64,000 nucleotides of DNA from Cerioporus squamosus (lineage: Eukaryota > Basidiomycota > Agaricomycetes > Polyporales > Polyporaceae). Where the stretch lies: assembly GCA_022592435.1 (NCBI GenBank), contig JABYQS010000060.1, positions 1 to 64,000 of the forward strand. The letters are read 5' to 3'. The position numbers and the translations under genes were made by a program. Shown piece by piece: positions 44,612 through 58,641 of this stretch; position 1 is the first letter of the stretch, and each line of letters begins with the position of its first letter. Below the pieces are notes generated by a model. The model worked only from the letters and a program-made list of their open reading frames with translations. It had not been told where the DNA came from and ran no database searches.

Positions 44612-46267
<1,656 letters not shown>

Positions 46268-46962
46268 ATGGTCGCAAGTGCTGCCACGCGCGGCGCATAG
46301 TGTAAGCTAATACCGCGGCTGCCCCAAAGGGCGCCCCGAGAAGAAGTACGGACCTCGGTGCTATATGTAATCTCAGAGACTGTGTTATCATCGTAATAGC
46401 CATATACCGATCCCGAGCGATGTGTGCGACTGCGTAGACTTACACGTGCGGTACCAGTAGAGGACGATGCGTAGACGCAATGTAGACGTATATACGATAT
46501 GTCCCGTAGCGACAGTTTGAAGTGTTGTTGCGCCAGCGAATAATGCATGATGCTGCGTTCCTTCCGTTTGGGCAGGACCAGTGCCGTACAGTATCAACTG
46601 TGTGTCCTACGTGCGCGCGTCGGGTGTTGCATGTCCACGTAGGGAGGGATGTGTGGGATGTATGCTGCTCCGATGTGAGCATGACGCGGAACCTTCGGTA
46701 GTAACTCGTACTCACCCGAACTTGCCCATAACCCATCTGCCTCCCAGCCGACGCGATCACGAACATCTCAGCATCTCTTCGCCGTTCTGGGGACAGTGCC
46801 AGTGGAAACCACGCATACATGATCGCTCGGGATCCTGCACAGAAGATGAGCATCGTAAAGGAGACACAAGGGCGGCATGGCTAGATTACCCACTGCGAAG
46901 CGTAGACCCGCCATCCCGCAAGGTCCCATGGATATGCAGAGCCAAGGAATCCACCACCACCA
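46268..46962. other. convergent intergenic region
   Basis: 3' ends of the epimerase (plus) and the small coiled-coil gene (minus). Nothing recognised. Confidence 0.4.
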
Positions 46963-47349
46963 CTACTTCTCCGACGGCTCGCCCTCGCCCTCACCTCTGC
47001 CTGGCACCACGACAGCCACGAGCTCCTCCTCCTCGACCACAACCGCTGCCGCTGTCTCCACCACCTCCCCTTCTTCCTGCCCGGCCCCGGTCCGTGCCTC
47101 CAGATCGCTCAGCAGGTCATCAAGGCTGTCCATAATCCCGTCCAGCCGCTCCTCCATCCCGTCCGCGAGGCCTTCCGCCGCCTCAAGCCTGCGCAGGAGC
47201 TCGACCACATCTTCGCCCTCGCCCGAGTCTGAAGAGCCGGTGCCTGAGAGAAGTTGCGTGAGGAGCGCGATGTCGGCTTCCAGACCAGAGGATGGCTTTG
47301 GTGGTGTGCCGCTGGGTTTGGAGGGCGCGTTTGAGGTAGGAGCGGACAT
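46963..47349 (-). CDS. small acidic coiled-coil protein, 128 aa
   Basis: Uninterrupted frame from ATG 47349 (MSAPTSNAPSKPSG) to 46963. A Ser/Pro-rich N-terminus is followed by a helical, heptad-like region (ADIALLTQLL, then VVELLRRLEAAEGLADGM, ERLDGIMDSLDDLLSDLEA) and an acidic/Val-rich tail ending in GEPSEK. The helical part looks like the small coiled-coil subunits of larger complexes, but none could be named. No membrane or signal segment. Confidence 0.55.
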   Translation of the reverse strand: MSAPTSNAPSKPSGTPPKPSSGLEADIALLTQLLSGTGSSDSGEGEDVVELLRRLEAAEGLADGMEERLDGIMDSLDDLLSDLEARTGAGQEEGEVVETAAAVVVEEEELVAVVVPGRGEGEGEPSEK

Positions 47350-47658
47350 GGTGAAGGTTAAAGACGGGCGCAAGGCGTCGTGCCGGGTACGGGTTAAGGA
47401 CTCCTATTCGGGGGTTCGGGCCGGGAGTAGACGCCAATCCCCTTCGGAGGTTCGGCATCGTCTACCCTCGTCTACCTGCAGTGGTACCTACCATATCGAC
47501 CGTTACCAGGACATGTGCATGCAAGTATCGTTTTTCGGACGTACATATGGCGCGGTTTAGAGAACATTTTCCCCATGATGCATGAGTACTGACTGTGGTT
47601 ACTTGTGAACATCACTTGACAGCCCGGATCAGCTCATGCAGTAAAGAGCTGGTGACAT

Positions 47659-47732
47659 GGGTCGGTGGCGTAGTTGGTTATCGCATCTGTCTAACACACA
47701 GAAGGTCCTCAGTTCGAACCTGGGCCGACTCA
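47659..47732 (+). tRNA. tRNA-Val(AAC), no intron
   Basis: Full cloverleaf: acceptor GGGTCGG/CCGACTC with one G-T pair, D-arm with GTTGG, anticodon stem TCTGT/ACAGA and loop CTAACAC with anticodon AAC at 47693-47695, T-arm CTCAG/CTGGG with TTCGAAC loop, discriminator A at 47732. A T-rich tract (tttcttttg) about 20 bp downstream fits a Pol III terminator. A-box and B-box (GGTTCGAAC-like, here AGTTCGAAC) are internal. The X-Y repeat copy 2 starts about 110 bp downstream. Confidence 0.95.
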
Positions 47733-48006
47733 TGATGGCTACTTCTTGGGTATTTCTTTTGTACCGTTTATCGGGATCGTGGCGTTGTTTATCTCATCAG
47801 AGGGACTTAAGAGTAGACGTAACCTCAACGGTTGCCAGAATCTATAACTAATGGCGCAGCGGGGGGGGTCCCACGTGGCAGCCATGTGCGCTGTTGCCGC
47901 CGAGCTTGCGAGGCGCTCTGGGTGCTGGGCCGAGCTTGCGAGGCCTCCGAGTTGGACTGTCTTACGCCGAGTTCCGCTCGGCGTCCCGCTGTCAACGCCG
48001 TAAGTG

Positions 48007-48051
48007 GATGACTTCCCATAAGGTTTACGGACGTCAGGACGTCCGTAAATG
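48007..48051 (+). repeat. left TIR of the Harbinger-like element, with internal palindrome
   Basis: Starts GGATGACTTCCCATAAGG. Positions 48025-48050 form a perfect palindrome: TTTACGGACGTC, two spacer bases, GACGTCCGTAAA. The word CGTCCGTA recurs at 48161-48168 and near the right end, and may be a protein-binding site. Confidence 0.85.
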
Positions 48052-48122
48052 CCTAGATCTGACTGAGATTCAAACTCAGCTGATGTTATTGGAGTCCGCA
48101 AATGCAGCAGGCGCCCAAACTC

Positions 48123-48150
48123 TAGAAGGGGGGGTCGACCCCCCTTTCTA
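48123..48150. repeat. G7/C6 near-perfect palindrome in the left subterminal region
   Basis: TAGAA, a G-run, TCGA, a C-run, then TTTCTA. A 28-nt palindrome with one mismatch, centred on TCGA, about 115 bp inside the left end of the transposon. Confidence 0.6.
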
Positions 48151-48365
48151 AACTGCAAAGCGTCCGTAGCTTATGTAATCTTTCCTTGTAAGGCTTCGTT
48201 TCGCGCTCCGACTCGATCTGGGATCTTGTCCGAAGCGCTCACGTCCGCGTCGCGCGTCGCGTTGCGCTCTCCTAGGCTCTCTTCTCTCCCTCATATCGTA
48301 TTCATCTTGTAACTACTCGCTCACTGCTCATCTTGTGTATCCTCTGCTCTTCTCGCTTTGCTTCT

Positions 48366-50180
48366 ATGGACGGATTTCAAGGCCCCAGCTCGCAGCAAGC
48401 CTCTTGGCAGGACCAGGCCAATGGCCGCTGGCATGGGAATCAGGCTTCAGGCTCTCAGCAAGACGTACGTATATCATCCTTATTCTGTCTATCAAAGCTA
48501 CGCTGACCATCATAACAGTATGCAGGGCCTGAGAGGTCGACAGGCACCCCATTTTCTGTGCAGCAGCCAGGCGCTCAGCTGCCCAACGGCGGTCCCAGCG
48601 CGCAGGGTGCCCCGCCTTTCCCTCCACATGGTGTGCCACCCTTCCCTCCCTTCCCTTCCACCTTCTCCTTCCATTATCCGCCCCCTGGGTTCCAACCTCC
48701 CTCGCAATCCACACCTCCGCCGGCACCGTCGCCGGCCCCTCCATCCTCCGCTTGGTACGAGAGGTTCTACCCCCCCGAGTCTCCCGCACCCTTGAGTCCA
48801 GAACCCGAACTCGAGCCTCGTGCAACCGAAGCCCCCGCGTCGTCGTCCGATCAGAGCAAGAAGCGGACGGCGGCGGAGCCGCTGAAGCCGTCGAAGAAGA
48901 TGAGAATGGAGTCGAAGGCGAAGGCGAAGGCGGGCAAGGGCAAGGGTAGAGCACGACAGGCAAAGGATGGGGATGGGGCGGCTGGTCCTGCGAAGGCAAA
49001 GGCATCCGGGCACAGCGGGCGTGCGCCGGGCGCGCAGAACTACATCAAGCAGGACTTCAAGGGCCTCTTCAAGATCCTCAAGAAGAAGAAGCCGCTGGGC
49101 CCTAGGGGATGGGAGAAGTGTGGGCGCAAGTTCAACAGATGGGCCGAGAGACACGGTCGTCCTCCACGGGCGGCAAAGGCTCTGCGGACAAAGTTCGAAC
49201 AGGTGAGTGTGTTCTCCCGTTGTCCGCAGCGTGTGCGTTGCTGCAGGGGTCGTTCCCATGCAGCGCGTCCTCGTACTGCATGCAATCGCTAACTGCATTT
49301 CGTCGTGCAGCTTGTGAACACTCCAAAGCCAACCGGTGAAGCCAAGGTTCCATGGCATATCAAGAAGGCCTGGAAGATCAACAGCCTCATCGAGGCGAAG
49401 GTCTGCTTGCGCGAGGTCAATGACAACAAGAAGATCAACCGCGACTCGGAGTCTGCCGACTCTGAGTCTGAGTCTGATTCGGACTCGGACTCGGACTCGG
49501 ACTCGGACTTGGACTCGGACGACTCTAGCTCCAGCTCCGACGACGACGACTCTAGCATCGACGAGGCTGGGGACGAGGACGACTCCGGGATTGAGGTGAT
49601 CGACACTCCGCCAAAGTTGTCCAAGACTTCGAGTGCTTCATCCTCGTCCAAGGCACCTCACGCAGCAAGTACATCCGCGAAGTCGATCGCCGCCACACGC
49701 CGTGCCCAGACCGCACAATACATGAGCTCCATCGCCACCGCTCTCGATCCAGCTCACCGCAAGGCTCAGAGTGAAGCCCGCTTTGCGCAGAAGCTCGTTC
49801 AGGGTGAGCTCGATTCTTTGAGGCAAGAGAAGCGCGACCTCGAGGCACGGAACCGCCAGCTCGAGGACCGTGTCTTCCAGCTGCAGCTGCAGCTAGAGCA
49901 GCGGGGCATGGAACTGGCCCGTCTCCAGGCCCGCCTCGAGATGCAAGATCTTCTGCGCACTTCCCATCGTCGATCTCGCTACGATGACTATTCACCCCGC
50001 ACCCCCCCGAACCGCCATCACTCATACCGCACCGTCTCCCCTCGTTCCCCTTGGTTTGACTATAGTCCACGGATGTGCAGCCCTTCACCCCAGACTCCTA
50101 GTCGCTCGCAGCGTACAGAGTCAGGTGCGAGCGGGCTCGACGCTCTGGCCTCTGTTGCGTCAAGTTCATCACATGTGTAA
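48366..50180 (+). CDS. Harbinger accessory protein, Myb/SANT-like plus coiled coil
   Basis: Three exons: 48366-48464, 48519-49202 and 49311-50180, in phase, 550 aa. The N-terminal 130 residues are Gln/Pro/Ser-rich. A Lys/Arg-rich region (KKRTAAEPLKPSKKMRM, KAKAKAGKGKGRARQ), likely nuclear-localising, follows. A helical domain reads LGPRGWEKCGRKFNRWAERH, then RAAKALRTKFEQLVNTPKPTG and IKKAWKINSLIEAK. It looks like the Myb/SANT-like fold (DUF6818 type by memory) of Harbinger partners. Next are an acidic Ser/Asp-repeat block (about residues 310-350) and a long coiled coil (KLVQGELDSLRQEKRDLEAR). In other Harbinger systems the partner brings the transposase to the nucleus and the ends; that role is inferred here. 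Confidence 0.8.
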
Positions 50181-50439
50181 GGATATACTCTCGTGCATAT
50201 CTCTTATGCTTCTTCCCCATCTTCCCTTGTCGCTTTCAAGTTTGGTGAAGCTTTACCATTACTGTCCTTACTGTCCCATCTGTCGTCTTAGAGCCTCCTA
50301 ATGTAACTTGTACATAGTACTCTCGAGAGTCGATTAATGCTGCTTTGATGTGGATATTTCTTATGATACTGTACATAGTTTGAATTCATGAACATAGTTG
50401 ATTTCATATTGTATGCCTTGTGATTGAACTACATCCAAG

Positions 50440-51851
50440 TTACTCTTGAGCTACACGATGGAACCGAGAGACCCGATCACGGCGACGGATCTCACCAAAG
50501 AGCACATTCTCGAAGTCGTCCCATATATCTGCATCCTCCGCATCCTTCCAGATCCGCATGTAGACATTCCGGATCTCCGAGATCCCCACCCGCTCTGCAC
50601 GCAGGTTGACCGAACGTACGCAGACCTCGAGAAGCTCTGAACGGCCCTCCGCATCATTGATATCGAGTGGAAGTCGGAGTCGTCCAAAGCCTGCGCGCAA
50701 TTGCCGCATGCCCCATTCAGCTGTTTGCCGATAGGACAGCAGCTGGCGGTCTCGGGCGAGCAGGGCCTCACGCTCGGCTGGATCCCGTGGCAGAACCGCA
50801 TTAGCCTTCATCGGGGCTTGGATGCGCCCTGCGATGCTTCTTGTTCCTCGTGGAAATGCAGTATCAGCGACCAAGTAGTACCCCTCAGGTGTCTGGCAGC
50901 GAAGCAGCTCATACACTGGACGGGCAACCTTGGCATCATGCCAGCTGCCTGGAGCGTTGAGAACTGCCTCCTTGACTAAACCTGCCACCAACAATTAATA
51001 TGAGTTACTGCTAAAATGTGCGAAAAATAACAGGACAAACCGCGCGGTGAGAAGACAAGCACACAGCTTGTATAGTGGCCATGCAACCACCCATTGTATG
51101 TTCCATTCTCAATCTCTGGATCGTCGGATGCGGCAGTAAGGAGATTGAGCCCATCTACACTCCCAATCGCTCCCCTCAGCAAGGGATGCCGTGCACGGAT
51201 GAGTGCGTTGTCCTCTGCACACTCATCCTCATCCTTCCACCATACGATGCTGCTGGCTGGGATCTGTTTAAGCACCTCCAGCAGGATCTTGAGAGCCCAT
51301 GAGCGGTAGCGGCTGATGGTCGAGGGGACGAGAGCAAATATTTGCTGGAGAGCGGTGTCGGGCATAGCTGAGGAAAGATAGTGGTAGATGAGACCTAGAG
51401 CTCCAGCTGCATCCAATGACCGGCGTCCAAGACGAGAGAGTCCATCAGGATTAGCGTCGGGGCGAGGGATAGGATGGTCGTTCCATGCGCGGGCAAAGCC
51501 CTGATCGAGGATGTAGTGGAAGGTCTCGACATCGATGCCCATGGTGGTGATGTACGCGCGGTCGTCGCGGCTCTTGTACAGAGCTTGCCACGGTGTGTCG
51601 CTGCGGGGGTTGGGCGGAAGCTGGGGACGGCGCAGGTACCGCCTGCTGGGCTGACGGCGCTCAGCGCGGGCTATCCGTGCTTCTTCCGCACTTGCGAAGG
51701 CCACAGCGAGGCCTGCAAGCGCGATCATCTCGTACTCCGCGTCTTCTTCCTCCTCAGAGGTGTCGTCGTATGCGAGGGATGCGAGAGGCATGGTGTCGAG
51801 ACGGCAGGAGCAAAGGTGCGCGGAGGGCCGGCGAGGTCGCGCGCGAGCCAT
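50440..51851 (-). CDS. PIF/Harbinger-like DDE transposase
   Basis: Two exons on the minus strand, 51851-51041 and 50981-50440, in phase, 450 aa. The N-terminal region is Arg-rich with an acidic patch (DDTSEEEEDAEYE). A helical segment (GLIYHYLSSAMPDTALQQIF, VPSTISRYR) matches the helix-turn-helix part of the family. The DDE_Tnp_4-type catalytic core shows GSVDGLNLL (first Asp), YNGWLHGHYTSCVLVFSPRG, LNAPGSWHDAKVARP, LVADTAFPRG (second Asp) and RQTAEWGMRQLRAGFGRL (candidate Glu). All appear intact. It converges on the accessory gene with about 260 bp between the two stops. Confidence 0.88.
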
Positions 51852-51860
51852 TTGATGGAG

Positions 51861-51920
51861 CGTCCGTAAACTACGTCACGCATGTTGACCATCCTTATGG
51901 ATACGGATAACGCGTCCGTA
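51861..51920. repeat. right subterminal CGTCCGTA motifs
   Basis: CGTCCGTAAA at 51861-51870 and CGTCCGTA at 51913-51920. With the palindromic TIR copy (51964-51971 and its inverted half) they form an array near the transposase start, plausible as transposase/partner binding sites or as the transposase promoter operator. Confidence 0.6.
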
Positions 51921-51946
51921 AATATATTTCAAACTCCGACGGTTGA

Positions 51947-51991
51947 ATTTACGGACATCCTGACGTCCGTAAACCTTATGGGAAGTCATCC
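51947..51991 (-). repeat. right TIR of the Harbinger-like element
   Basis: Reverse complement of the left TIR with one difference, in the second half of the internal palindrome (ACATCC versus ACGTCC). Followed directly by AGT, the target duplication. Confidence 0.85.
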
Positions 51992-51994
51992 AGT

Positions 51995-52869
51995 GTTACG
52001 CAGAGTCCTGATCAAAGATAGGGAGCCCAAAGAAAATTTGAGCAACCATGCCTTATTATGTACTGACTTATGATGGGTTGATCACAAGTACTTACTTACC
52101 CAGACTTACTTATCCCCGGCTGATCAGTAACTAATCGGTCACAGTGCGCATCATTGACGGGTTCTAATGCCCTTCAACTCTGCAAGTCCTGCCACATTGA
52201 CCGCCCTTCACCAAGTGGTATTAAGTATACCGACCCCCTACTTACTCAGCTTGCCTCAAGCATTCAAGGTCTAGGTGAAATCATGATCCTTGAAGTGTTC
52301 AAAGGCTCACGGGGGCAGCTACGGGGCTTACTGCCAACGAATTCACTAAGTTCCCTTCAATGAAATAGATACTTATTGCACACTGAGCCGCAGGCGAAGC
52401 AACGTAACGATGAGCCGAAGGCTCACGCGCCACGGGGCAAAGCCACGGGTGGAAAACTAGTACTCACTGAGGGCGGAGGTTGGACAACCTCAGTCCTGTG
52501 CTGTGCCGCTGCGCAACATGAGGTCTGGTGTTCGTGTAGTCATCGGACGCTGCAGTCCCTGTACATGCCAGCATATCAGCTACTGCTGCTTCAGATCGGC
52601 GCGTGTCCTGTGAATGCGAACATGTATGTACCCATGGAGACCTCGACGTGAACTACTAGGAACTACTGGTACTTACATAGACGAGACTTGCCCTGACTTG
52701 CGATCCACACTAATTGGCGCTCAGTACACAACCGCCTTGATCTAGTACCACCACCTTCTCCTCCTCTGCCCCTCGTTATTTCTACCTCTGTCTTACGGAG
52801 CGCATGAATCATCGATAAACTGGACACACACATACTCGCTAGCTCGCGCGTCTTCCCCGACCGTCCAAG
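51995..52869. other. remainder of repeat copy 2 and 5' flank of exo84
   Basis: To about 52475 this is the AT-richer right part of the X-Y repeat. After that comes single-copy-looking DNA with a CT-rich tract at 52745-52800, likely promoter of the EXO84 gene. No gene recognised. Confidence 0.45.
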
Positions 52870-55506
52870 ATGCAGTCTTTACGAACCCGCAAGCCCTCTG
52901 AGTCGCGGCCGAAGGGCGCGCAACGCCAGGGGACGATGCGAAAGCCCAATCCCGCTGTGCGCGACCCGGAGCGGCGAGCCACACGCGTCGGCGAGAAGAT
53001 GAAGAAGCGGATGTCTATGCGTTACGCAGACATCTCCGCCCCGACCGACGCACTGGTCCCTGACGTGCCTTCGTTACCGATTGGAATGCGCGTGGGGCAA
53101 TATAGACAACAGAGTCAAGACGAACAGACAATCACCGAGGAGCCCAAGGAGGATCCAACGGCTGCTGAGCTGAAGCTGTTGGATAAGGACGACTTTGATC
53201 CGGATGCTTGTGCGTATGCTTGCTCTTGTGGTCGCGATAATGCTGCATGTCTGAGGCAGACATCAAGCTGAAGCTCGCGAATTCGACTGAGTCTGAGCTC
53301 AGATCACTGCAGTCATCGTTGCAGAGTCAGAAGGACGGCGTTGCAGTTGACCTGCAGCGGAACGTATTCAAGAAGTTGGTCGTCTGGCTTTTGGCGCAGT
53401 GACTACGTATCTGACATCTGTGTTTCAGCTACGCAGAATTCATGCTCGTTTCGAAGGAGGTGAGCACCTTGGAGAACGAAATGCTGGAGTTCAAGGAGTC
53501 CCTTGCGGAGTGGAAAGGCATGCCATCACTGCTACACATTGACGACTCTGCTTCTGTTGCTGGTACGTCGTATTTCCCGCTGCATCGCCTGCGTCTCAGC
53601 TACACACGTCAAACGTAGAGCGTCGCCGGAACGTTCGCTCGTCGGTCGCGGATCTACGCGTACTGTACGCGAACCAGATGCAGAACTTGCACATGCAAAT
53701 CGAAGGCTCCTCCAAGTTTGTCCCCACGACGCCCGGAAGGCATATCGTCACTGAAATCGATAACGTGGTCGCACTGAACCCGGCTACATACAAGGTCGAC
53801 CATTCGGTAAGGTTCGTGCTACTTGACGACGCCGTCCTGGTCGCGCGGAAGAGGAAGCGGCGGAACAATGCGGAGAGCGACAAGCTTGTGGCGGAGAAGT
53901 GTTGGCCGCTGAACGAGATGCTCGTCCTAGACACAAAGGATTCCCCGAGTGCGTTGCTCTACCGTTTCATCTGACCATCACCTTGGCTGACCTCTGCTAC
54001 CCACAGGCATGACGAATGTATTCAAGATTAGACATGGCAAGGAGACGCACGTATACCGGACTGAAATATCCGCGGACAAGAAGAACCTGCTCTCGCAGTT
54101 TCGTTCTGTCGCAGAGGAGCTTGCCGCGAAGAAACGCAAGGAGCGAGAGGGGGAACATCAACGGCGCAAGAGCTTGTGGATGGGTGACGTGAGTGACATA
54201 CCGTACTCGCCTCCCCTAGACTGACCACCGGTCAAGCGAGGCTCGATGGCTTTCCCAGGGGACAGTATCCCCGGAATGCCACCTATGCCGGACTGGATGA
54301 CCGACCTCGCAAGCAAAGCTGGCGAACTCGGCGCGAGTGCGAAGGAGAAGGCGGAGCGCGACGCACGCTGGATAGGCGACTGGTCCGACGAGCTCACCGT
54401 CGCGATTGCGCTACGCGAGTGGGACAAGGCTGTCGCGCTTGTCGAGGAGGGCGAGGGCAAGCTCGCGGTGATGCCCCCGCTCGCGGCGAAGTTGACTCCG
54501 CTCAAGGCGTCGCTCACAGCCGCACTCTTGCAGAGCCTTTCTGTGCCGTCGAACCGCAAGAGCACCGTTGTCAGCCTCATCGGCCTGCTGGTCAGGCTCA
54601 AGGCTGGTGCTGCAGCGAGGAGCACGTTCCTTGCTGCGCGTGCAGATGTGATCAAGAAGTGCGTCCGGAAGATCGCGTTCGAAGGACACATAGGCTCGTA
54701 CATAGGCGACCTGGCGACCGTCGTGTTCACGGGGATAAAGCATACCGCGGACTGGTTCCTCGCTAGTTTCAGAGAGAACGAGGTTGCAAGTAGTGAGTCA
54801 TGTCTCTTTATTTGCACGGTTGGTCGATGCTAACGGCGTCACAGGCTTCGTGGAATGGGCGAAATCTCAGATAGAGCTATACGCGGAGATGTTCCGGAAA
54901 CAGGTGTTCAGCTCCGACGTGGATTCGCGCACCATCGACGAGGCGATACAAATCACCCACGTCCAGAGCAAGAAGCTCCTCGAAGAGTTCGGCATCGACT
55001 TCCGTTTTCTCCTCGATAGTCTCCTCGTCGAGAAGCCCAAAGAGAACACTCGCCCGCCGACATATCGCGCGCACGCCGATCGCACTGTCGACCCAATCCA
55101 TACGCCTGCGTCAACCCCCGTACGCTCCCGCTCTCCAGCCCCTTCCTCTGCCTCGACGCCTTCTCGATCGCGTACTCCCGTTCCTGCCGTACCACCGGTA
55201 CCGTCTTCTGCAGCTCTCCCTGTTCCGGCAATGCCCGCGCTTGCAGTCCCGACGCCGCTTTCCGCTTCTCCTGGCAGATCTCCGCCGTCAATGCGACTGC
55301 GTTCACCGGTGCCCCCACCTCGAACCGCGAGCCAGGCGTCCTACAGGAGCCAAACGCCGACGAATGACCTGAGCAACAGCTCGAGTCGGTCCGTGCGCGG
55401 TAGCCCTGCACCTCCTCCACCGCGCTCGAGGGATCGTCCTGGCAGCTCTGCAGGGCAGCGGCCGCAGGGTTTGGAGCCATTGCGGCGACAGGGTGGCATG
55501 TTCTGA
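52870..55506 (+). CDS. exo84: exocyst complex component EXO84
   Basis: Subunit of the octameric exocyst that tethers secretory vesicles to the plasma membrane. Seven exons: 52870-53209, 53260-53374, 53429-53562, 53619-53948, 54007-54188, 54237-54792 and 54845-55506, in phase, 772 aa. The N-terminal coiled region has the family pattern NVFKNYAEFMLVSKEVSTLE, then EMLEFKESLAEWKGM. A PH-like domain follows (about 220-330, VRFVLLDDAVLVARKRKR, WPLNEMLVLDTKDSPS). The C-terminal Exo84 domain (about 385-620) has WIGDWSDELTVAIALREWDKA and FVEWAKSQIELYAEMFRKQV. The last 150 residues are Pro/Ser/Arg-rich and probably disordered. All junctions are consensus. Confidence 0.93.
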
Positions 55507-56012
55507 GATCGGACGTGGCTTGTGCTCATGAAAGCTCGCAGTCACAGATCTCTGTATTTCTACGCATAACTTATTTTGTTTGGAGGAATGAGGTTGTGAT
55601 CGTGTGCCCCGGTGTGCCCTTCGTCTCATCCGATGTCCCAGTGCTTCATAGTAAGCCTGTGATTGCCCTGCATATGACAACTTCACTGACGTGCGCGCAT
55701 AGATGAACAGTGGGATACCTGGTTTCATCACGGCAGATGTGTCGACCCCAAGCTATGCTCGGGACCAGTATATGCACGAGCGTCCTCCGGATCCCGGTGC
55801 AGGCCCTCAATCGTGTGGCTCCGACCGCGCGTTCTATATCTGTGCGCCAGACAAGCCATGTCCAGAATCATTAGCGTTCGACGTATGCTATCGCCTCTCG
55901 CCCGGACTATGATTGGATTTCATGAGAGTAAGCTTCTGTTTCTTGCTCAAGGGACAAACTGGCCGTGATCACTTGACAGGGGGGACGGTTCCGCAGGGCT
56001 TCCACTGCAGTC
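55507..56012. other. intergenic, no gene seen
   Basis: 3' flank of exo84 and upstream part of the MFS copy B region. Confidence 0.4.
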
Positions 56013-56085
56013 AGAAGTCCCATGAGCTGCCCAGAGAAGGTGAGAAGCGCGAAGGGCTCCCGTAAAGCACGCGGCTCGTATAAAA
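56013..56085 (+). promoter_or_regulatory. promoter of MFS copy B: conserved block and TATA
   Basis: AGAAGTCCCATGAGC at 56013-56027 and TATAAAA at 56079-56085, about 59 bp before the ATG. The same 15-mer and a TATAAAG sit at similar distances before copy A, on the opposite strand. Confidence 0.55.
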
Positions 56086-56137
56086 CACTCTCGCTCTCAG
56101 TGCACGCTCGCGGTTACAGACCCCCACTCGATTATCC

Positions 56138-58641
56138 ATGACTTTCGGGATACTTGGCGAGTTTCACGCTTGGGTCGTTCGCATTCTAGAGTTTGACCTT
56201 TTCTGCAGAAGACCACTCCCTCGAGAAGATCCCCGGCACCGGGTTGTTGTCTGACCAAGGGATAATCCACGGACATGAGGTCAACATCGATGCGGCGAAG
56301 GACTTGAAACGGGGAACTGGAAAGCATTCGCATGTCGTTCTCATCCCGCAGCCGTCCGACGACCCTCGCGACCCGTAAGCAACATACCTCTCGCTTCGAG
56401 TCTTCCTGCCTTCATTGCTCGTGCTGACCGCCGGACACGTAGCTTGAACTGGCCAACCTGGAAGAAGGAAGCATGTTTCTGGACCCTGTGCGTATCCTCT
56501 CCATGCTGGATCCGACCCGAGCTGCCTATCTGCAACTGAGCCACAGAGTGTTCGCTGCGAGCCTGGATGGTGCGCTATCGCCGATGGTGGGCCCGGGCTA
56601 CGTGCTCCTCGCGAAGCAGTTCAACGTCTCGGTCGACGACGTGACATCCTCGTTCGGCTTCATCCTCCTCGGATTAGGCATATTCATGTACGTCTTGGCA
56701 TCCTCTCTGGACGGCTGCTGTGCCGGACATCTTCGTCAGGTTGGCGCAGAACGCTCTGGCTGTGAAGTTCGGCCATCGCATCGTCTACTTGCTGTCTGTA
56801 TCCCTGGTGAGCCGAGCCCGTGGTCCGCCGAGAGGCTTGACGTTGCTTATCTGCCCATGTGTATTCCGTACAGATGTTCATCTCATGCATCTGGTGCGCC
56901 CTGAGCCCCAACCTGGCCTCAATCAGGGCTTCGCGCCTCTTTCAAGGTTTTGGCATGTCCGCACTCCAAAGGTGCGTCCGACGGCGTTGACTACTCGTCC
57001 GCCGACTGACCGGCTGAACCTCACACTAGCCTCGTCGCCTCGACGTTGGAACAGATATACCAGTGAGTCGGACTCCAAGTGTACAATTGCGAACCTCCAT
57101 ACGATGCCGCCCCCGGTTCGCAGTGTGCATGAGCGGGGCTCGCGCTCTGTTATATGGAGTTTCTCCATCATGGCGGGCATCACCCTGTAAGCCCTCCTCG
57201 GAAGATGCAATGTATCCGTGCGAGACTGACCGCTAGACTCTCCGATTTTCCGCTCGTCCCTTTCCCAGGGGCCCGCTCATCTGCAGCTACGTGATCCAGA
57301 ACCTGTCCTGGGAGTTCGGCTTCTGGTTCGTCAGTATCCCCCTCGGGATGGCGGTCATCATGGTTTTCTTTTTTGTGCCCGAGGTGAGTTACGTTCATCC
57401 CACACGCATGGTACTTTCTGTTGATTCGTGTGTGCAGACCACGTTCGACCGGCAGGAGGCCATCAGGCTACAAAGGAAGCGAAGCAGAGACCGGAGTAGC
57501 CTGGAGAAGTCCGAAGTTTCTGGACCCGAGGTGGATGTCGAGAGCGTCGACGGTCGCGCCTCTTCGCCGCCTAGCTACGTCTCGCAGCTGAAGATCTGGC
57601 ACGGGTCGTTCACGGACGAGAGTATCTTCAAATTGTTCTTGAGACCGTTGCCGTTCTTGCTGTCACCTGTGGTAAGTCAGTTCAGAGCAATGCATAGGGC
57701 GTACAGGCCGCTTCAACTGACGTATGGGAACCAGACCTGGTTCCTCTTCCTCTCGCACGGGCTGCAAACTGTGTGGCTCAGTAAGTCACAAGCGACATGC
57801 AGACTCGCTGAACGCTCACTTGCGAGCAGGTCTGGTGCCCCTATGCTCGTCCACCATCTTCACGCTAGAGTACGATTTCGACGCAGCACAGATAGTGCGT
57901 ACCTCCTTCTCGTCTTCCTCAGATCAGATGGCACCACTCTGACATCCGACACCCCCAGGGCCTAACGAACCTCGGAGGCATCGTCGGCATCGTCCTAGCC
58001 ATGCTCGTCACCGGGCCTCTGAACGACTGGGGCGTCGTCTGGATGTCCAAGCGCAACCGCGGGATCTACGAGCCCGAGTTCCGCCTCCTCTTCATGATCA
58101 GCATGCTCTTCGGGGTCTTCGGATACGTCGGCTGGGCAGTCGGGAACGACCACCACATGCCCTGGATCGGCGCGGTCGCCTGCATCACGTACGGCCCCCC
58201 ATGCCATACTACTATGTACCCTCCTAGCCCTTCTCTGACGCACGCCTCACAGCATGGTGAACTTCAGCATGGTCGTCTCCGGCTCCGCGGCGGTGACGTA
58301 CCTGCTCGACACGCACCGCGCCAACGCGCTGCACATCTTCGCGCTCAGCAACTTTGGGAAGAACATGGTCCTCTACGCGTCCACGTTCTTCGCGAACGGC
58401 ATGGTCCTCAGCCGCGGCGTCAAGGTCTCGCTCCTCATCCTCGGCGCGTGCCAGGCCGTCTGCTGGCTCGCGTCCGTGCCGATGTACGTCTTTGGGAAGC
58501 GCGTCAGGGCGTTCGTGAGTGCTCTTCTTTCCGAGACTGGGTTCTTGTGCCAACGCCTTTTGGTGGCTAGAGCTGATGAGAGTTGGGCAGATCGCACGAC
58601 ATCCGGAGCTGTTTCGAGGGGATCTGCCTACGGAGGATTAG
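56138..58641 (+). CDS. MFS transporter, DHA1-type, copy B
   Basis: Fifteen exons: 56138-56156, 56209-56374, 56443-56487, 56547-56687, 56740-56806, 56874-56971, 57030-57062, 57124-57186, 57269-57383, 57438-57671, 57735-57780, 57830-57894, 57959-58188, 58253-58514 and 58591-58641. Exons 1-9 and 11-14 have exactly the same length as in copy A. Exon 10 is two codons longer and exon 15 nine codons shorter. Residues are highly similar (for example MLVTGPLNDWGVVW and YVGWAVGNDHHMPWIG in both). Intron 1 starts with GC (GCGAGT), where copy A has GTGAGT. The start region is MTFGIL. The protein seems intact. Substrate unknown; DHA1 call from DDPRDPLNWPTWKKEA before TM1. Confidence 0.87.

What the first reader, a model, noticed from the sequence alone, without database searches (positions are those of the whole stretch)
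48007..51991. Complete two-gene PIF/Harbinger-like transposon in a basidiomycete
Both ends, the AGT target duplication and two uninterrupted spliced genes are present, and the TIRs differ at one of 45 positions. This looks like a young, possibly active autonomous element. Seen directly: TIRs, TSD, exon structures and DDE-like residues. From family knowledge: Harbinger elements encode a DDE_Tnp_4 transposase plus a Myb-like partner and make 3-bp duplications. The Ser/Asp-repeat and long coiled coil in the partner are unusual.
Basis: partly seen in the sequence, partly recalled or inferred. Interest (0 to 1): 0.75.

Follow-up and report, generated by a model that had tools for sequence, protein, structure and literature searches.

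The report
Intact two-gene Pangu-type fungal transposon
This is a complete, structurally intact two-gene cut-and-paste transposon, most likely in a mushroom-forming fungus; it belongs to a lesser-studied branch (Pangu/Harbinger2) of a well-known superfamily, landed in another mobile element, and comes with families of near-identical miniature relatives.

Summary
Both genes are open after predicted GT-AG splicing: a 450-aa DDE_Tnp_4 transposase and a 550-aa DUF6818 partner.

The element interrupts a 631-bp Helitron-like repeat. Of 14 other copies fetched, 13 carry the uninterrupted site with AGT once, so the duplication is shown by paralogous empty sites. This exact sequence was found once in the 54-Mb assembly. 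A 69%-identical two-gene relative (transposase broken) and MITEs share its ends; 21 of 21 complete elements examined have perfect 3-bp ANT duplications.

The partner's DUF6818 domain is predicted to resemble Myb/trihelix-type DNA-binding domains (modest scores), relevant because the Pangu paper's Results report no known motif in the second ORF. A one-sided subterminal palindrome is kept in 19 of 21 elements. Activity is inferred, not shown.

The parts
48006..51991 (.). Complete Pangu-type (PHIS superfamily) two-gene DNA transposon, 3986 bp
   Evidence: TIRs, TSD, two open genes, paralogous empty sites
48003..48005 (.). Left target-site duplication AGT
51992..51994 (.). Right target-site duplication AGT
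48006..48050 (+). Left TIR (45 bp); contains an inner perfect palindrome 48024-48049 (12-bp arms, 2-bp centre)
51947..51991 (-). Right TIR (45 bp, 1 mismatch to the left one)
48123..48150 (.). One-sided subterminal palindrome (core GGGGTCGACCCC at 48131, imperfect outer arm); the core is kept in 19 of 21 family elements at a near-fixed distance from one end
48366..48464 (+). Partner gene, exon 1
   Evidence: ORF and GT-AG splice sites
48519..49202 (+). Partner gene, exon 2 (proline-rich N part, basic Lys-rich stretch, first part of DUF6818)
49311..50180 (+). Partner gene, exon 3 (rest of DUF6818, Ser/Asp-rich acidic stretch, coiled-coil region); stop at 50178-50180
   Evidence: structure of the homologue P0121
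51041..51851 (-). Transposase gene, exon 1 (includes catalytic D233)
50440..50981 (-). Transposase gene, exon 2 (includes catalytic D310 and E359), stop ends at 50440
47841..48005 (.). Left part of the interrupted 631-bp Helitron-like repeat (starts TC, preceded by A)
51995..52460 (.). Right part of the same repeat (ends CTAG, followed by T)

Best explanation
It is a structurally autonomous cut-and-paste DNA transposon of the Pangu (Repbase Harbinger2) group of the PHIS superfamily. Inferred mechanism: the DDE transposase (D233, D310, E359; RNase H-like fold) cuts at the outer ends of the 45-bp TIRs and joins the element to a Y-ANT-R target with a 3-bp stagger, which is duplicated on gap repair. 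The DUF6818 partner, through a Myb/trihelix-like domain, a basic stretch and a coiled coil, binds terminal or subterminal motifs and brings the transposase into the nucleus and onto the ends, as the Myb-like protein does in zebrafish Harbinger3. The same machinery, or its close relatives, mobilised in trans the MITEs that share these ends. Shown here: ends, 3-bp ANT target duplication with empty sites for this element, both open genes, domains by profile, nested insertion, MITE families. Predicted: splicing and folds. Inferred: protein-protein and protein-DNA contacts, current activity, trans-mobilisation.
Confidence: 0.87

Rival explanations
1. A canonical PIF/Harbinger (TWA) element, that happened to land in AGT.
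For: Same superfamily, two-gene plan, length about 4 kb (PMC4482050 gives about 4124 bp for PIF/Harbinger).
Against: 21 of 21 family members examined have A-N-T duplications; none is TAA or TTA.
Confidence: 0.04
2. A structurally intact but silent relic (an alternative to current activity, not to the classification): the genes are open because the insertion is young, yet the element no longer moves, and the MITEs were spread by other, now lost or unassembled, elements.
For: Single copy found in the assembly; the MITE ends fit this element at only about 69-92% and the 424-bp subfamilies carry their own end variants.
Against: The interrupted repeat is itself young (9 of 14 other copies 98.9-99.7% identical to it, 2 at 98.0-98.1%, 3 at 95.3-95.7% with a gap), so this insertion is younger than that; transposase lineage under purifying selection; no other intact transposase of this family was found in the assembly.
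Confidence: 0.35
3. The second gene is an unrelated passenger and the transposase works alone, as in Spy.
For: No interaction data; the partner diverges faster: the window and C76 partners are 39% identical over 500 aligned positions, their transposases 74% over 415.
Confidence: 0.1

Closest known systems
Pangu group of the PHIS superfamily (Han et al. 2015, PMC4482050; = Repbase Harbinger2 according to PMC12730594)
   Same: 3-bp ANT duplications confirmed by paralogous empty sites; TIRs starting GG; DDE transposase without other recognised domains; two ORFs; length (3986 bp) near the reported mean (about 3487 bp); group already known in three basidiomycetes.
   Different: TIR of 45 bp lies just outside their reported 11-40 bp. 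The second ORF carries a recognisable domain, DUF6818, whereas their Results section reports no known motif there (their Discussion, inconsistently, says Myb/SANT). Only 2 of their 34 families were potentially active; this one has both ORFs intact.
Canonical PIF/Harbinger (TWA), e.g. zebrafish Harbinger3 and rice Ping/Pong
   Same: Superfamily, two-gene plan with a (here probably) Myb-like partner, MITE satellites.
   Different: Target is ANT, not TWA; the partner domain is DUF6818; no Myb/SANT profile over cut-off.
Bacterial IS5 family
   Same: Han et al. report the same ANT target and tree adjacency to Pangu.
   Different: Prokaryotic, no partner gene (recalled, not tested).

Membership tests
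PHIS superfamily (PIF/Harbinger-ISL2EU-Spy) | DDE transposase alignable over the catalytic region (DDE_Tnp_4) | tested here: met
   PF13359 55.3 bits, cut-off 24.8; D/D/E conserved
Pangu / Harbinger2 group | 5'-ANT-3' 3-bp target duplication confirmed by paralogous empty sites | tested here: met
   21 of 21 elements; empty sites for the window's element in 13 of 14 fetched paralogues
Pangu / Harbinger2 group | Two ORFs, one a DDE transposase without further domains | tested here: met
Pangu / Harbinger2 group | TIR 11-40 bp starting AG or GG (range in Han et al., not stated as a criterion) | tested here: inconclusive
   starts GG; length 45 bp, slightly longer
Pangu / Harbinger2 group | Transposase falls in the Pangu clade next to IS5 | not testable with these tools
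canonical PIF/Harbinger group | TWA target duplication | tested here: not met
   0 of 21
canonical PIF/Harbinger group | Second ORF with a Myb/SANT DNA-binding domain | tested here: inconclusive
   no Myb profile over cut-off; DUF6818 instead; predicted fold Myb/trihelix-like with modest Z
Helitron (host repeat) | TC...CTRR ends, insertion between A and T, no target duplication (criteria recalled) | tested here: met
   A|TC in 13 of 13 readable 5' ends and CTAG|T in 13 of 13 readable 3' ends among 14 copies; no duplication apparent by eye in the flanks
Helitron (host repeat) | 3' hairpin and an autonomous RepHel relative | not tested
   not looked for with a tool

The most novel reading that the evidence does not exclude
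DUF6818 is the Pangu group's own trihelix/Myb-type end-binding protein, and Pangu elements use an asymmetric transpososome: besides the TIRs, one end alone carries a conserved dyad (GGGGTCGACCCC core, about 126-146 bp in) that the coiled-coil partner dimer binds, marking one end and loading the transposase. MITEs keep spreading because they keep this one-sided site.
Probability: 0.22. Interest if true: 0.6.

Novelty: new member of a known kind. Interest (0 to 1): 0.42.

Why it matters
Han et al. counted only two potentially active Pangu families and their Results could not name a motif in the second ORF. This genome offers a structurally intact copy, a close broken relative, MITE families with near-identical copies and empty sites: a usable system for testing what the second gene does and how the ANT target is chosen. 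It also suggests a function (DNA-binding helper of a transposase) for the uncharacterised Pfam domain DUF6818.

Tried and rejected
Canonical TWA Harbinger: rejected by 21 of 21 ANT duplications.

Sequence search of solved structures: the only hit of the transposase profile was a hemoglobin at E 0.36 (chance), and the partner's hits were E 0.024 or worse and unrelated. Foldseek alone gave nothing at E <= 0.001 for either model; its first rows for the transposase model included RNA polymerase II elongation complexes as well as Tn5. NCBIfam gave no family for P0001 and P0123. A tRNA-proximal targeting idea for the host repeat (tRNA-Val at 47658-47733) was dropped: ARAGORN found no tRNA in the 1.2-1.3-kb stretches around the 14 other copies; the flanks seen were short.

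Allelic empty site: a second contig (C256) matches window 52485-58493 at 98.0% but begins just after the repeat, and the left flank showed no second copy over 45400-47400; so whether the other haplotype lacks the element is unknown. A genome-wide count of the subterminal palindrome could not be obtained: searches were all answered 'busy'; the same request was repeated unchanged. So it is not known whether the palindrome is specific to this family. Against the dyad reading: the window's own palindrome has a mismatch in the arm, and in C246 and C667 the outer arm pairs only with a one-base offset.

Rows dropped: the single ends (C946 cut by its contig end, C1 near 1035215, C211, C46, C899) and one 4-mismatch off-target in C317 were left out of the 21. 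C71 (fetched), the fifteenth strong right-half match, was not analysed. The 14 repeat copies include at least one pair that shares flanks (C156 and C24), so they are not all independent; likewise C946 and C76 share a flank. The DUF6818 search of the genome found only C76 and missed the window's own, intron-split domain, so it is a lower bound. P0001 and P0123 being on one contig is inferred from equal contig length only. Protein searches scored only the candidates sharing most words in two of three cases; of 509 transposase hits 120 were listed. My notebook entry is superseded where it differs (partner start and end one base off; repeat given as 633 bp with its flanking A and T).

Full report
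What is there. The stretch 48006-51991 (3986 bp) is bounded by 45-bp terminal inverted repeats that match at 44 of 45 positions and by AGT on both sides. The TIR core, with up to 3 mismatches, is found nowhere else in the window, and 100 shuffles gave no match.

Genes. On the minus strand a transposase gene (51851-50440) with one 59-bp intron gives 450 aa. On the plus strand a partner gene (48366-50180) with introns of 54 and 108 bp gives 550 aa. Both are open and they converge. Pfam finds DDE_Tnp_4 in the first (55.3 bits, cut-off 24.8) and DUF6818 in the second (44.3 bits, cut-off 27). The second partner intron is supported by relatives: P0121 (Polyporus arcularius) aligns across it without a gap, and the predicted protein P0122 carries extra, intron-like residues at that very place.

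Insertion site. The flanks are not unique DNA: 47840-48005 and 51992-52461 are the two halves of a dispersed repeat. Fourteen other copies were fetched, of 15 strong right-half matches. Against the window copy with the element left out, 9 of 14 are 98.9-99.7% identical, 2 are 98.0-98.1% and 3 are 95.3-95.7% (these three are about 27 bp shorter); 13 of 14 read CGTAAGTGTTACG at the insertion point, with AGT once. The repeat starts A|TC and ends CTAG|T in all readable ends (13 of 13 each), so it looks like a non-autonomous Helitron of 631 bp. The transposon therefore landed in an already young mobile element, and its own insertion is younger still.

Family in the same genome. The assembly (54 Mb, 988 contigs) was found to hold this exact element once. 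The 18-base TIR core with up to one mismatch occurs 47 times, against 2 for the reversed control. Among the fetched loci 21 elements at 20 loci have both ends; 21 of 21 have perfect 3-bp duplications, all A-N-T (ACT 9, AGT 5, ATT 4, AAT 3). In the symmetrised flanks Y precedes (and R follows) in 35 of 42. Sizes: this element, a 4076-bp relative (C76), 424-bp MITEs in two subfamilies and related forms of 413-1716 bp. Ten copies of one MITE subfamily are 98.3-100% identical to each other; the four 424-bp copies of the other are 97.2-99.5%. Two MITEs at C105 stand side by side sharing an ATT, which fits an insertion of one at the duplication of the other.

The relative C76 has the same convergent two-gene plan and a DUF6818 partner, but its transposase frame has an in-frame stop and, judging by the overlap of the matched pieces, a frameshift. 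C946 is cut off by its contig end and shares C76's flank and a stop. The window element is thus the only one of this family seen here with an intact transposase; the DDE_Tnp_4 search listed two further, unexamined loci (C163, and C236/C164). Between the window and C76 transposases 74% of 415 residues agree, with dN 0.20 and dS 2.6 (saturated), ratio about 0.07; the partners agree at 39% of 500 aligned positions.

Candidate binding sites. The 9-mer TTTACGGAC/GTCCGTAAA occurs six times in the element, all within about 130 bp of the ends, and once in the rest of the window. A palindrome with core GGGGTCGACCCC lies 126 bp from the left (partner) end here and 145-146 bp from one end in the other elements that have it: 19 of 21 have the exact core, C152 has a variant, and C282 has it split by an insert. 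Pairs 9 and 13 of the arm change on both sides between C76 and the MITEs while staying complementary; but the window's copy has an arm mismatch, and in C246 and C667 the outer arm pairs only with a one-base offset. This is suggestive of a dyad under selection, on few independent sequences. In zebrafish Harbinger3 the Myb-like protein binds a 9-bp subterminal motif and its contact with the transposase is needed for both to reach the nucleus together (PMC9710019, passages read), so a role as partner-binding site is a reasonable guess.

Classification. Han et al. 2015 (PMC4482050; abstract, first part of Results, Discussion and found passages read) define PHIS groups by their target duplication: TWA for PIF/Harbinger, ANT for Pangu. 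PMC12730594 (passages read) equates Pangu with Repbase Harbinger2. By that rule this is Pangu; the clade test could not be made. Han's Results state that no known motif was detected in the second ORF of Pangu, while the Discussion lists Pangu among groups with Myb/SANT. DUF6818 appears in no paper of the library searched. Searches for Harbinger with basidiomycetes, Pangu, Harbinger2, Polyporales, Agaricomycetes plus MITE, and Lentinus listed 7, 5, 1, 2, 0 and 1 papers; only PMC4482050 and PMC12730594 of these were opened, and no title of the rest points to this family. The library lacks most subscription journals.

Verdict. A well-supported, structurally intact member of a known but little-studied group, recent by nesting, with MITE satellites. 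Its special value is the domain assigned to the partner and the conserved one-sided palindrome. Activity is not shown.

Noticed in passing
window 48123-48150; C76, MITE loci L033-L049, L076, L077: One-sided subterminal palindrome (core GGGGTCGACCCC in 19 of 21 elements) at a near-fixed distance from one end, with arms that differ between subfamilies yet remain largely complementary (offset by one base in C246 and C667).
   Followed up: partly
L035 (C105) 1886-2736: Two MITEs of different subfamilies stand side by side sharing an ATT duplication, which fits insertion of one at the target duplication of the other.
   Followed up: partly
window 47841-48005 and 51995-52460; L060-L073: A 631-bp Helitron-like repeat with 15 strong matches elsewhere in the genome; three of the fetched copies (L070, L071, L072) share a roughly 27-bp shorter form.
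   Followed up: partly
window 47658-47733: tRNA-Val (AAC) gene 107 bp upstream of the Helitron-like repeat.
   Followed up: partly
L074 (C256:1-6000) against window 52485-58493: A second contig at 98.0% identity begins just after the Helitron-like repeat, suggesting a partly phased assembly of a dikaryon.
   Followed up: partly
   Followed up: no
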